64,000 nt of DNA from an uncultured Alphaproteobacteria bacterium. Its GTDB lineage: Bacteria > Pseudomonadota > Alphaproteobacteria > UBA2966. Of this stretch, positions 23,804 to 29,095 are shown one piece after another. Below the pieces are notes generated by a model. It saw only the letters and a list, made by a program, of their open reading frames with translations. It did no database searches and was not told the origin of the DNA. Numbering within the stretch: the first letter of the stretch is position 1; the number at the start of each line of letters is the position of its first letter. Made by a program: the position numbers and the translations under genes. Location of the stretch: the NCBI GenBank assembly GCA_958295725.1, contig OY282368.1, positions 1,198,501 through 1,262,500 on the forward strand. The letters are read 5' to 3'.

Positions 23804-23884
23804 CTCGCCGGCGCCCCGCGGTCGGAACGCCGCCCCGCGCGCGCCATCCCGCGGGGAGGGGAAGGATGTTCGCCCGCGCGAGTC

Positions 23885-23995
23885 CGACACCTTCCGACCG
23901 CACCGGGCCCTTGGCGGATACACCGCTGTCGAGTACCTTGCCGGACACTCGGCCGAAGAACCTCCCCACCGTCTCATATGTCCTGAACCGGGACA
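23885..23995 (+). mobile_element. Decayed 3' end of an IS481-family transposase gene
   Basis: The translated frame reads FRPHRALGGYTAVEYLAGHSA, which aligns with FRPHQALGGHTPAQYLHSLTA at the C-terminus of the intact transposase at 62.1-63.2 kb. It runs into the same CTCATATGTCCTGAACC terminal palindrome (23979-23995). The rest of the element is gone. Confidence 0.8.
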
Positions 23996-24062
23996 CGGCG
24001 TTTGTCCGCCGGGCACTCCGTGTTACGATGGCATGGACCGTCGACGGGATGGGGAGGAGCCG

Positions 24063-25181
24063 ATGTTCGACATTCGTGGCAATTTCATGGCGGCGCTGGC
24101 CGCCTCGGGTCTCCTGCTCGGGACCGGCACGGCCCAGGCGCAGATCAAGATCGCGACCGCCGGACCGATGACCGGGCAGTACGCGTCGTTCGGCGAACAG
24201 ATGATGCGCGGCGCGGAAATGGCCGTCGCCGACATCAACGCCGCCGGCGGCGTTCTCGGCGAGCGGCTCGAACTGCTCATCGGCGACGACGCCTGCGACC
24301 CCAAGCAGGCGGTCGCGGTCGCCAACAAAATGGTGAGCGACGGCGTCGTGTTCATGGCGGGCCATTTCTGCTCCGGGTCGTCCATCCCCGCCTCGAAGGT
24401 CTACGAGGAGGAACAGATCCTGCAGATATCGCCGGCGTCCACGAATCCGAAGCTGACGGACGAGGGCGACGACAACGTGTTCCGCGTGTGCGGTCGCGAC
24501 GACCAGCAGGGCATCGTCGGAGGGAACCTGCTGGCCGACGTCTTCGGCGAAAAGAAGATCGCCATCCTTCACGACAAGACGGCCTACGGAAAGGGCCTCG
24601 CGGACGAGACCAGGAAGCGGCTCAACGCCCGCGGCGTGACGGAGGCCATGTACGAGGCCTACACGGCCGGCGAGAAGGACTACACCGCGATCGTCTCGAA
24701 GATGAAGGCGGTCGGCATCGACGCCTTCTACGTGGGCGGCTACCACACCGAGGCCGGCCTGATGATCCGCCAGGCGCACGAGCAGGGCTACAGGCCGCAG
24801 CTCGTGTCGGGCGACGCCCTGGTCACGGACGAGTTCTGGAAAATCACCGGCGCGGCGGGCGAGGGTACGCTCATGACCTTCAGTCCCGACCCCCGGAAGA
24901 ACCCGGAAGCCGCCGAGGTGGTGAAGAAGTTCAAGGCCCAGGACTACGAGCCCGAGGGCTACACGCTCTACACCTACGGCGCCATCCAGGCGTGGGCGCA
25001 GGCCGTCGAGAAGGCCGGTTCCACGGATACCGCCGCCGTGGTCGCGGCGCTGCGGTCGAACCGGTTCGATACCGTGCTCGGCGGCATCGGCTTCGACGAG
25101 AAGGGCGACGTCACGGCCCCGGGCTACGTCTGGTACGAATGGAGCGGCGGCACCTACGACTACGCCAAGAAGACGATGTAG
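24063..25181 (+). CDS. Branched-chain-amino-acid-type periplasmic binding protein (LivJ-like)
   Basis: 372 aa. The signal peptide ends TAQA, followed by QIKIATAGPMTGQYASFGEQMMRGAE, the classic opening of the Peripla_BP_6 family. The ligand-site region HFCSGSSIPAS and the hinge DDQQGIVGGNLLAD are in place. The ATG at 24063 is preceded by GGGGAGGAG. No permease or ATPase genes of a Liv system are adjacent, so it is an orphan receptor. The ligand may be an amino acid or an amide. Confidence 0.9.
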   Translation: MFDIRGNFMAALAASGLLLGTGTAQAQIKIATAGPMTGQYASFGEQMMRGAEMAVADINAAGGVLGERLELLIGDDACDPKQAVAVANKMVSDGVVFMAGHFCSGSSIPASKVYEEEQILQISPASTNPKLTDEGDDNVFRVCGRDDQQGIVGGNLLADVFGEKKIAILHDKTAYGKGLADETRKRLNARGVTEAMYEAYTAGEKDYTAIVSKMKAVGIDAFYVGGYHTEAGLMIRQAHEQGYRPQLVSGDALVTDEFWKITGAAGEGTLMTFSPDPRKNPEAAEVVKKFKAQDYEPEGYTLYTYGAIQAWAQAVEKAGSTDTAAVVAALRSNRFDTVLGGIGFDEKGDVTAPGYVWYEWSGGTYDYAKKTM

Positions 25182-25221
25182 CCGCTCCGCCGGGGGGAGG
25201 GGCGACCCGGACGGCGGGACG

Positions 25222-26019
25222 TCACATCGCGCCCCGGTGGATCGCCGCGACTCCGGCGGCCACGAGCAGGACGCCGACCGCGCGGCCGATGAGGTCTCCG
25301 CGGGGCGCGACCTTCTCGACGAACACGAAAGCGGCGATGGCCGCGACCCACAACACGTTCATCACGCCGGCGACGAACAGGAGCGCCATCAGGACCCAGC
25401 AGCACCCCACGCAGAACGAGCCGTGGCGCAGCCCCATGACGAGCGCGCCCGTCCGGCCCGGCCGCCAGGAGGTCACGAGGAAGGACATCGGGGTCCGGCA
25501 GTGGACGAGACAGGCATGTTTGAGCGGCGTCCACTGGTAGACGCCGGCGGCGATCAACAGAGCGCCCCCGAAGGTCGCGCCGGCGCCGGTCATCGCCGCC
25601 GAGACCAGCGCCGCGGCGTGCAGGACCCACTGCGCGAGGGCGGCGGCGGCGCTGAAGCCCGTCCAGACGACGAGGTATCCCAGCACGAACACGCCGACCG
25701 GAAAGAGGTCGCCGCGCCGCGCCTCCCGGCGCTTGCGATTCACGGTCGCGAACGTCATCGCCATGGGCGCCGCCGACGGCACCATCATGGCGACCATCAT
25801 GATCGACCACATGACGAACAGGAAGCCGAGATACCCCACGTCCCACGACGCCGGGTGGGGCATGGCCACGTCCATGCCCACGCGCGACATCCGGTCCGCC
25901 TCGACGATCAGATAGAGCCAGCCCAGCGCCGCGACGCCGGCCAGGCTCAGGCCGACGATGGCCCGGTCGCCGACCGCGATGCGGGAGAGCAGCCGCTGTC
26001 TCGTTCCCGTTCCTCGCAT
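25222..26019 (-). CDS. DUF2182 integral membrane protein
   Basis: 265 aa, about six to seven hydrophobic segments. Conserved MVAMMVPSAAPMAMTFATVNRKRR, YQWTPLKHACLVHCRTP and HGSFCVGCCWVLMALLFVAGVMN match DUF2182, whose Cys/His pairs suggest metal handling. DUF2182 genes normally sit next to DUF1326 genes. Here the DUF1326 gene (28484-29095) is 2.4 kb upstream, separated by a Septu-like module. An ~80-bp piece of this gene recurs at 28395-28473. Confidence 0.85.
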   Translation of the reverse strand: MRGTGTRQRLLSRIAVGDRAIVGLSLAGVAALGWLYLIVEADRMSRVGMDVAMPHPASWDVGYLGFLFVMWSIMMVAMMVPSAAPMAMTFATVNRKRREARRGDLFPVGVFVLGYLVVWTGFSAAAALAQWVLHAAALVSAAMTGAGATFGGALLIAAGVYQWTPLKHACLVHCRTPMSFLVTSWRPGRTGALVMGLRHGSFCVGCCWVLMALLFVAGVMNVLWVAAIAAFVFVEKVAPRGDLIGRAVGVLLVAAGVAAIHRGAM

Positions 26020-26156
26020 GGCTTTCCGCTGTCCGATGCGCCCCGATCAGGTCGCGGGCGGCGCGCAGGGCGGAGGCCAGCAGGTCGAGCGCCGCCAGAA
26101 CACCAAGTCACGCAACGCGCACCCGTCTCGCGTCTCTTCCCACCGGCGGCAGCGCG

Positions 26157-26960
26157 CTACCACTGCAAGGCTTCCGGAACCTCCGTGAACAGGTCCCGCA
26201 ACGCGCGGATGTCCTTCCACTGGCGCTGCATCTCGCGCCACACCGTCGGGTGGTCGCTGGTCCGGATCGCCTCGCTCATCGTCTCGAGCGAGGCCGCGTC
26301 CGCGCCGTCGTCCCGATCGCGCCGGTACTCCGCGAGGTGGGCGCGGAAATGGCCGTAGGCTTGGCCCCGCGCTTTCGACAGTGTGTCGCGGTTGAGTTTC
26401 AGGAGCTCGATCGTGTACCCGGCGCGCCTCTCGTCGGCTCCACGGAGGCCTTCACGGGGGAGGAACAGGAAGGTCTCCTTGATCTCGAGGGCGAGAAACC
26501 CCAGGGGATCCTCGCGGCGCGGGTCGATCAGGGCCGGCGTTCCCGCCGCCGGCTCGGAGACTGCGGCGCCGGGGCGGCGTGCGACGTTCACCAGGCCGCC
26601 GCCGCCGTCGAGAACCGAGAAATCGTTGCCCTTGGCGCGGTTGCATCCTCCGCAGGCGAGCAGATAGTTCTCCCAGACGAACGTCCGCTCGGGATAAAGG
26701 CTCTTGGGCCAAATGTGTTCGATTTCGTCACCGACGGAATCCTCGCAATAGCCGCAGCGCTGGACGCCCATGCACATGCCTTCGAGCGTGCAGCGGACGA
26801 CGCCGAACACCCGGTCCTTGCGATGGTTGTAGCGGCCGAAGAGTTGGCTGCCGGCCGCCACCCGGGCGGCGTAGTCGCCCGCCCCGTCGACCTCGGTTTG
26901 GTAGGCGCACAATCCCCGCGCCGTTTTCACATCCAGGCAGTGGCCGCACAGACGCAGCAT
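26157..26960 (-). CDS. HNH endonuclease, Septu PtuB-like
   Basis: 267 aa. Zinc-finger-like CxxC pairs at C69/C72 and C103/C106 bracket the HNH core: E81-H82 (DEIEHIWPKS), N98 and CNRAKGN. An extra N-terminal CGHC (5-8) is present. This matches PtuB-type HNH nucleases, which cut DNA in Septu defence when licensed by the partner ATPase. It starts 7 nt after the ATPase stop, in the same operon and usual A-to-B order. Nuclease activity and phage target are inferred from family. Confidence 0.85.
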   Translation of the reverse strand: MLRLCGHCLDVKTARGLCAYQTEVDGAGDYAARVAAGSQLFGRYNHRKDRVFGVVRCTLEGMCMGVQRCGYCEDSVGDEIEHIWPKSLYPERTFVWENYLLACGGCNRAKGNDFSVLDGGGGLVNVARRPGAAVSEPAAGTPALIDPRREDPLGFLALEIKETFLFLPREGLRGADERRAGYTIELLKLNRDTLSKARGQAYGHFRAHLAEYRRDRDDGADAASLETMSEAIRTSDHPTVWREMQRQWKDIRALRDLFTEVPEALQW

Positions 26961-26967
26961 CCGGCGT

Positions 26968-28272
26968 TCAACCGCCGGACGAGGCGGTGACGCCAGGATC
27001 GCTCGGCAGCGCCGCCCGCAACCGGTCGCGCTCGCGCCGTTCGTCGTCCGACAGCGGCGCCCGCAGGCGCTTGCGGTTGAGTCGGGCGAGCCGCGCGCGG
27101 TTCTCCTTCGATTGTTCGGACCGGGTGACGTCTTCGCCGAACAGTTCGGTGCCGTAGGCGTCGAGTATGTCGCCGCCGATCAGGCGGGCCAGTTCGGTTC
27201 CGACGACGCGCCGGGGATCCTCCTCGGAGCTGGGCGCGGGCAGCTGCCAGACACTGCCGCGCCGCGCCGCCCGGCAGATGATCGGGCTGTGGGTGGTGAC
27301 GAAGAATTGCGTTTCCGGGAAGTGGTCCACGAACCAGTCGCCGATGCGCTGCTGCCATCCCGGATGGAGATGGGCGTCGATCTCGTCGATCGCGACCACG
27401 CCGGGGAGCGCGACCGTCGCCTTGCCCTGGTCGATGCGCGACAGCACCGTTTCGGCGTCGGACGTGGCGAACAGGATGCGCAGGAGCTCGAAGATCAGGC
27501 TGAGGATCGACCGGTATCCGTCGCTCATGTCCTCGACGTCGACGCGCACGCCCCGTCCGTCGGCGACCGTCACCCGATCGGACGTCACCTCGTCGATCCG
27601 CGCGCCGTGCGGCAGCAGGACGGGGCCGGAGCCGTTTACGAAGGAGACCACGGCATTCTTTATCTTTTCAGCCTCGCCGTCTCCTTCGAGATTCTTGACC
27701 TGGAGATTGCGCAGCCAGCGAAGGCTCTCGCCGAGCGCGACGTCCTCGCCGAACGCCGAGAGATGCGCCGCTAGCCGCGGATGGGTCAGGTAAAGCCTGT
27801 CCATCTCCGGGTTCGAGCCCGAAAAGCGCCGGAACGCGCCGAACGAGGCGGAGAACCATCCGTTTCCCTGGCCCCAGACCGTCCTGTTGGTAGTGTTGTC
27901 CTTGTAGAATTCGATCGCCGCCCGGTTCCCGCCGGACGCAGCCTCGATTTCCACACTCGGTTCGATCGCCCGCCCGATAGCGGTCTTACCCTGGCCGGAC
28001 CAGCGGTCGTGGTCTTCGTGCGCGTGCAACTGGAGACGGATACTGCCTGCCGCGCTGCCGACGGCGAGCCAGCGGGACCAGTCCTGGCGCGTGGCGAGGG
28101 CGTTCGCTTCCCCCATGAGCGCCAGCGCGAGGGCGCGGACGACGGTGGATTTGCCGGAGCCGTTGTCCCCGAGAAGGACGTGCCAGCCGGCCGGGTTTTC
28201 GTCTTCGCGCAGGTCAAGATCGAATTCCCGTATCAACCGTACGTTCTCGATCTCAAGCCGCCGGACGTGCAT
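26968..28272 (-). CDS. AAA ATPase, Septu PtuA-like
   Basis: 434 aa. Walker A is GDNGSGKST (35-43). A signature-like MSDGYRSILSLIFELLRIL, Walker B VVAIDEIDAHLHPGWQQRIG (~290-305) and switch VTTHSPIICRAARRG follow, an SMC/OLD-like ATPase. The C-terminus is Arg/Glu-rich, with SKENRARLARLNRKR and ERRERDRLRAALP, as in PtuA. The ATG at 28272 was chosen over a GTG at 28311, because conserved MHVRRLEIENVRL begins there and GGGGA precedes it. With the next gene it forms a type-I-like Septu pair; no reverse transcriptase is near, so it is not a retron form. Confidence 0.87.
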   Translation of the reverse strand: MHVRRLEIENVRLIREFDLDLREDENPAGWHVLLGDNGSGKSTVVRALALALMGEANALATRQDWSRWLAVGSAAGSIRLQLHAHEDHDRWSGQGKTAIGRAIEPSVEIEAASGGNRAAIEFYKDNTTNRTVWGQGNGWFSASFGAFRRFSGSNPEMDRLYLTHPRLAAHLSAFGEDVALGESLRWLRNLQVKNLEGDGEAEKIKNAVVSFVNGSGPVLLPHGARIDEVTSDRVTVADGRGVRVDVEDMSDGYRSILSLIFELLRILFATSDAETVLSRIDQGKATVALPGVVAIDEIDAHLHPGWQQRIGDWFVDHFPETQFFVTTHSPIICRAARRGSVWQLPAPSSEEDPRRVVGTELARLIGGDILDAYGTELFGEDVTRSEQSKENRARLARLNRKRLRAPLSDDERRERDRLRAALPSDPGVTASSGG

Positions 28273-28394
28273 CGGGCTGTCCCCGTTCCCTGGACGATGA
28301 GAGCCCCGCACTAGAACGGCGCGGTCTTCGCCCTGTCAAGCATCCGCTTCGCCCGAAGCTCCTTGGGGCGCGCGACCCGCCACCCGGAAGCATC

Positions 28395-28473
28395 CCGACC
28401 GGAAAGGGGTCGTCGCGCCTCCCGGCGCTTGCGGTTCACGGTCGCGAACGTCATCGCCATGGGCGCCGCCGGC
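28395..28473 (-). pseudogene. Fragment of a DUF2182 gene
   Basis: On the minus strand this encodes APMAMTFATVNRKRREARR, nearly identical at DNA level to 25694-25776 inside the full DUF2182 gene. It begins about 10 bp beyond the DUF1326 stop, where an intact DUF2182 gene would be expected, but lacks the first ~80 and all later codons. It marks the junction of the Septu-like insertion. Confidence 0.8.
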
Positions 28474-28483
28474 GCCGCCGCTC

Positions 28484-29095
28484 TCAGTTCCGGCTCTCGT
28501 GCGTGTGGGTGTAGCGGCCCCAGAAGACGTTGCCGCCCGAGTTGTCCCATTCGAGCCCGAAGTTGTCGAAGCGGCAGACGTTGGACCGGCCGCACTTGAG
28601 CTTGCCGCCGAGCGCGATGCGCTGGCGCGTGTGCTCCAGTTCCGGCACGCGCCCGCCGAACCCGTCGATCGGCGCGTAGTCCACTTCGAGGATCCCCGGG
28701 ACCGACGCCTTCCGCGTCTCCGTGCTGAATTCGATGGGCGCCGCGTCGATGCCGAGCCATTCCGCGGTGAGGGCGTCGATGCCCTCGAAGACGCCGCCGG
28801 CCTCGCCGCCGAAGATCGCCTTCATCGCCGCCTGCTGGTCCGCGTCCCCGCGTTCGTCGACGAGAACGCCGGTGCGGTAACCACCCGCCCGCATGTTGCC
28901 GGGCACCTCCGCGACGAGGATGGCGTTCAGGCCGTCGAGCGGCGTCGCGCCGAAATTCCCGCGGACGACGCGGAAGGCCATCATCAGGTGACAGCCGCCG
29001 TAGCCCGTCGACGGCGCGCCGGTGAACGGGCAGGGGCAATTCGGCGGACAGTTACAGGTCTCGATGTAGTCGAAATTCAGCTCCCAGGGGGTCAC
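28484..29095 (-). CDS. DUF1326 domain-containing protein
   Basis: 203 aa. It starts at a GTG with GAGGAG 8 nt upstream: (M)TPWELNFDYIETCNCPPNC. The CNCPPNCPC cluster near the start, CHLMMAFRV and the C-terminal LKCGRSNVCRFDNFGLEW are family hallmarks, and the cysteines suggest metal binding. Function is unknown. Family members usually precede DUF2182 membrane proteins, which fits the interrupted pair seen here. Confidence 0.85.
   Translation of the reverse strand: MTPWELNFDYIETCNCPPNCPCPFTGAPSTGYGGCHLMMAFRVVRGNFGATPLDGLNAILVAEVPGNMRAGGYRTGVLVDERGDADQQAAMKAIFGGEAGGVFEGIDALTAEWLGIDAAPIEFSTETRKASVPGILEVDYAPIDGFGGRVPELEHTRQRIALGGKLKCGRSNVCRFDNFGLEWDNSGGNVFWGRYTHTHESRN

What the first reader, a model, noticed from the sequence alone, without database searches (positions are those of the whole stretch)
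25222..29095. Septu-like module wedged between DUF2182 and DUF1326, with a duplicated gene fragment at the junction
DUF1326 and DUF2182 are normally neighbours. Here a PtuA/PtuB-like pair separates them, and an ~80-bp DUF2182 piece remains right after DUF1326, while a full DUF2182 gene lies beyond the module. This records how the defence module was gained, by duplication and insertion or by import as a block.
Basis: partly seen in the sequence, partly recalled or inferred. Interest (0 to 1): 0.6.

Follow-up and report, generated by a model that had tools for sequence, protein, structure and literature searches.

The report
Septu defence genes inserted into operon
A two-gene anti-phage system of a known type (Septu) was inserted fairly recently between two normally adjacent genes of this bacterium, with a short copied scrap of one of them at the junction; the event is clearly readable but the parts are ordinary.

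Summary
On the minus strand the order is DUF1326, an ~85-nt copy of DUF2182 (PpoB2) codons ~79-109, ptuA, ptuB, full DUF2182. Both same-genus genomes held (G001, G002) have desaturase-DUF1326-DUF2182 at the matching site with only a ~35-nt spacer and no PtuA, so this is a derived gain of ~2.45 kb. The pair matches PADLOC's Septu models over nearly full length and keeps the Walker and HNH residues: a member of a known kind.

The piece does not 'remain' from an old adjacent gene: it is internal, lacks codons 1-78, and shares 12 of 14 lineage-specific states with the full gene beyond the module (76/80 bases identical, one 5-nt deletion), so it is a recent copy. The full DUF2182 is the native orthologue (dS to G002 0.34; neighbours 0.42-0.49), so its import from a distant donor is not supported.

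New details: the other junction lies in a copy of a genome-specific dispersed repeat that seems to supply DUF2182's new start codon; DUF2182 shows faster protein change on this branch; its far side is also rearranged. How the copy arose (filler in one illegitimate insertion, or duplication then deletion) stays open.

The parts
28484..29095 (-). DUF1326 gene, GTG start, native; its stop codon has become TGA at the junction
   Evidence: PF07040 E 8e-39; 84-88% identical protein at the matching place in G001 and G002
28395..28479 (-). copied internal piece of DUF2182 (codons ~79-109), with a 5-nt deletion; out of frame, probably without function
   Evidence: 76/80 identical to 25694-25783; E 8e-25
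26968..28272 (-). ptuA, AAA/ABC-type ATPase, 434 aa
   Evidence: PADLOC PDLC00269 E 1e-151; Walker A GDNGSGKST, Walker B VVAIDEID, TTHSP
26157..26960 (-). ptuB, HNH nuclease, 267 aa
   Evidence: PADLOC PDLC00340 E 3e-98; PF01844; H82, N98, C69, C72, C103, C106 invariant
25995..26042 (-). copy of a dispersed repeat that contains the present ATG of DUF2182
   Evidence: 80-86% matches at five other places of the own genome, none in four relatives
25222..26019 (-). full-length native DUF2182 (PpoB2, copper-transfer family)
   Evidence: PF09948 E 2e-67; dS 0.34 to G002

Best explanation
A stand-alone Septu (PtuA-PtuB) module was gained by this lineage, most likely after it split from the nearest held relative (G002), and landed in the ~35-nt spacer of a native DUF1326-DUF2182 operon, replacing roughly 27 nt of spacer and the native start codon of DUF2182. 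The join on the DUF1326 side holds a short copied piece of DUF2182; the join on the DUF2182 side holds a piece of a dispersed repeat. Copied scraps at both ends fit one illegitimate insertion (end joining or template switching) with filler DNA. In function, PtuA would be the ATPase sensor and scaffold and PtuB the HNH nuclease that cuts nucleic acid on phage infection. Shown: gene identities, intact motifs, empty site in both congeners, late copying of the piece, native origin of the full DUF2182. Inferred: the single-event mechanism, and defence activity.
For: Empty orthologous site in G001 and G002. No PtuA in the six held same-genus and same-family genomes at E 1e-5, nor in the other 384 genomes sampled from the class at E 1e-40, while the own genome rang. 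Septu models matched over nearly full length, catalytic motifs kept across relatives. The piece has the full gene's state at 12 of 14 sites where that gene differs from G002. The nearest PtuA relatives found, 44-50% identical, sit as ptuA-ptuB pairs in unrelated contexts on an Oryzibacter contig and on Methylobacterium and Hymenobacter plasmids. The left junction falls in a dispersed repeat not found in congeners.
Against: No close donor was found, so the route of arrival is unknown. GC and GC3 of ptuAB (0.68, 0.86) do not stand out from neighbours. The repeat copy and the DUF2182 copy could be separate later events. Defence activity rests on homology only.
Confidence: 0.6

Rival explanations
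1. Duplication first: DUF2182 was duplicated in tandem, ptuAB entered between the copies, and the upstream copy then decayed to an internal scrap by deletions on both sides.
For: The scrap is in the same orientation as DUF2182, lies where an upstream copy would lie, and has its own changes including a 5-nt deletion.
Against: Needs a duplication, an insertion and two deletions, while the scrap is still 95% identical, so all of these would have to be recent; no other trace of an upstream copy was found between DUF1326 and ptuA.
Confidence: 0.25
2. Import as a block from a close strain: the arrangement arose elsewhere in the same species complex and was brought in by homologous recombination through DUF1326 and DUF2182.
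For: Homologous exchange between close strains would leave no trace in dS; all flanking genes are equally close to G002.
Against: Only moves the origin of the scrap to another strain; no such strain is held. A distant donor is excluded for DUF2182 by its dS.
Confidence: 0.1
3. The arrangement is ancestral and the congeners lost ptuAB.
For: Only two congeners are held.
Against: DUF1326 and DUF2182 are neighbours without the pair in family and class relatives too; the scrap carries states specific to this lineage; PtuA not found in held relatives.
Confidence: 0.03
4. Assembly artefact: a chimeric join placed ptuAB and the scrap here.
For: Raw reads cannot be seen.
Against: The locus lies inside a 3.5-Mb contig of a three-contig assembly; the scrap differs from the full gene at 4 bases plus a 5-nt gap, which a plain assembly repeat would not.
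Confidence: 0.02

Closest known systems
Septu (PtuA-PtuB), stand-alone type; E. coli structures 8ee4/8ee7
   Same: ATPase gene followed by HNH nuclease gene; Walker and H-N-H residues kept; PADLOC models PDLC00269 and PDLC00340 matched almost end to end
   Different: Only distantly similar in sequence to the solved proteins (PtuA E 2e-13, PtuB E 0.003 by phmmer); target molecule unknown
PtuAB effectors of group I-A retrons (Eco7/Ec78)
   Same: Same ATPase-HNH pair; Eco7 PtuAB depletes tRNA-Tyr (PMC11555353)
   Different: No retron protein among ten neighbouring proteins by PADLOC; PtuA 434 aa against ~550 aa; NCBIfam retron models far below their cut-offs
PpoB2 (COG5486) of Marinomonas mediterranea
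   Same: DUF2182 is now Pfam PpoB2; PpoB2 is involved in copper transfer to the tyrosinase PpoB1 (PMC2855505)
   Different: Here paired with DUF1326, not with a tyrosinase; its partner protein is unknown

Membership tests
Septu | PtuA-type ATPase gene directly followed by a PtuB HNH nuclease gene on the same strand | tested here: met
   PADLOC near full-length matches, 7 nt between the genes
Septu | Walker A/B motifs of PtuA and H-N-H residues of PtuB, shown to be needed for immunity in E. coli Septu (PMC13096335) | tested here: met
   GDNGSGKST (K41), VVAIDEID, H82 and N98 present and invariant in alignments with relatives
Septu | Stand-alone, not a retron effector pair | tested here: inconclusive
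   No retron protein among ten neighbours by PADLOC, retron NCBIfam models below cut-off; an msr-msd RNA was not searched for
Septu | PtuA-PtuB oligomer with nuclease activity | not testable with these tools
   needs biochemistry
Septu | Protection against phage | not testable with these tools
   needs plaque assays
DUF2182/PpoB2 | PF09948 domain above its cut-off | tested here: met
   227 bits against 28.7
DUF1326 | PF07040 domain above its cut-off | tested here: met
   134 bits against 25

The most novel reading that the evidence does not exclude
The defence module was captured in one templated end-joining event that left copied host scraps at both joins, and the capture rewired the host operon: DUF2182 now takes its start codon from a dispersed repeat and probably depends on transcription through ptuAB, tying a copper-handling gene to a defence module.
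Probability: 0.2. Interest if true: 0.4.

Novelty: new member of a known kind. Interest (0 to 1): 0.25.

Why it matters
It is a readable example of a Septu module entering a chromosome with no integrase or transposase gene seen in the insert, with an empty site in two congeners, and with a copied scrap that places the event late on this branch. It bears on how small defence modules settle in new genomes. The defence system itself is of a known kind.

Tried and rejected
Import of DUF2182 from a distant donor: rejected by dS. Ancestral presence with loss in congeners: unlikely, see rivals. Defence island: none of ten neighbouring proteins is a known defence protein (weak Cas3 helicase hits belong to a RecG protein). 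Phage origin: no full-length PtuA relative in phage records and none in viral contigs. Consensus promoter upstream of ptuA: none found by the scan. A copy of the left-junction repeat also at 25176-25240: one of six copies scored above all 300 shuffles, the rest did not, so not claimed. Source of the ~115 nt between ptuB and the repeat: no informative match in the own genome or congeners. Literature on DUF1326 or DUF2182 under those names: none held.

Full report
What is there. On the minus strand the window holds, in order of transcription, DUF1326 (28484-29095), an ~85-nt piece of DUF2182 (28395-28479), ptuA (26968-28272), ptuB (26157-26960) and a complete DUF2182/PpoB2 gene (25222-26019). 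ptuA and ptuB match PADLOC's Septu models PDLC00269 (E 1e-151) and PDLC00340 (E 3e-98) over nearly their whole length, and pairs from Oryzibacter, Methylobacterium and Hymenobacter share the Walker and HNH residues.

Empty site. Both congeners held, G001 and G002, carry desaturase, DUF1326 and DUF2182 in the same order with about 35 nt between the last two. DUF1326 and DUF2182 also lie near each other in G004, G006, G021, G030 and G036, in G036 in the opposite order. PtuA was not found in the six same-genus and same-family genomes, nor in the other 384 genomes sampled from the class at E 1e-40. The tool warns that an empty answer without a known positive shows nothing, with the same query, found the own copy and serves as the positive control.

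Junctions. At the end of DUF1326, G002 reads GGAATTAGCCGAGAGACGACG; the window reads GGAACTGAGAGCGGCGGCG and then runs into the DUF2182 piece. On the other side, similarity to the congeners resumes at about the third codon of DUF2182 (CGGCTGCT). The DNA just before that, 25995-26042, is a copy of a dispersed repeat with six places in the own genome and none found in G001, G002, G004 or G006. The present ATG of DUF2182 lies in that repeat. The inserted DNA is thus about 2.45 kb, and about 27 nt of native spacer and start region is gone; both figures are read from alignments and depend on the unknown sequence before insertion.

Age and origin of the piece. The piece and the full gene agree at 76 of 80 aligned bases, with one 5-nt deletion in the piece. 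Of 14 sites where the full gene differs from G002, the piece has the full gene's state at 12, G002's at one and neither at one. It was therefore copied from this lineage's own gene well after the split from G002. It corresponds to codons ~79-109, so it is not simply the start of a gene cut in two.

The full gene is native. Against G002, DUF2182 has dS 0.34, while DUF1326, the desaturase and two hydrolases have 0.42-0.49. Its protein has changed faster: a three-taxon estimate gives dN 0.110 on this branch and 0.037 on G002's, against 0.032-0.049 and 0.019-0.025 for the four neighbours. In the copied segment most changes are shared by the piece, so there they predate the copying. Relaxed constraint is a possible reading, not shown.

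How the arrangement arose. One illegitimate insertion with copied filler at the joins explains an internal scrap on one side and a repeat scrap on the other in the fewest steps (inference). Tandem duplication followed by insertion and deletions is possible but longer. No integrase or transposase gene was seen within the insert, which is filled by ptuA, ptuB and short non-coding stretches.

How it would work. Published Septu work shows that both ATPase and HNH residues are needed for immunity, and that targets differ: E. coli B88 Septu cleaves tRNA-Tyr, retron-Eco7 PtuAB depletes tRNA-Tyr, and the E. coli ATCC 25922 Septu is cited as cutting nicked phage DNA (PMC13096335, PMC11555353). Which applies here is unknown. 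PpoB2, the characterised relative of DUF2182, is involved in copper transfer to a tyrosinase (PMC2855505); no link between copper and defence is shown here.

Surroundings. Beyond DUF2182 the congeners carry a run of genes that look like TauE/SafE permeases (named by eye, not by a family search); a 2.4-kb DNA query from that run finds only one 129-bp weak match in the own genome. In its place lies an ABC substrate-binding gene (PF13458) that sits on other contigs in the congeners. The locus has thus been rearranged on both sides of DUF2182; whether in one event is unknown.

Verdict. A real, derived insertion of a known kind of defence module, with an instructive junction. Interest is modest: the system is known, and capture of small modules between operon genes is expected from their patchy distribution.

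Noticed in passing
25995-26042 (-); also G000:C1 near 391476, 750220, 1135011, 1408101 and 2527600: Dispersed intergenic repeat family with a G+C-rich palindromic part, six places in the own genome and none found in four relatives; one copy contains the present start codon of DUF2182.
   Followed up: partly
24050-25222: The far side of DUF2182 is also rearranged: a TauE/SafE-like gene run of the congeners is missing, and an ABC substrate-binding gene located elsewhere in congeners abuts DUF2182 tail to tail.
   Followed up: partly
25222-26019: DUF2182 shows about three times more nonsynonymous change on this branch than on G002's, a larger excess than its neighbours show.
   Followed up: partly
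23879-24003: The stretch upstream of the ABC substrate-binding gene has several 73-77% matches on different contigs of congener G002, suggesting another dispersed repeat.
   Followed up: no
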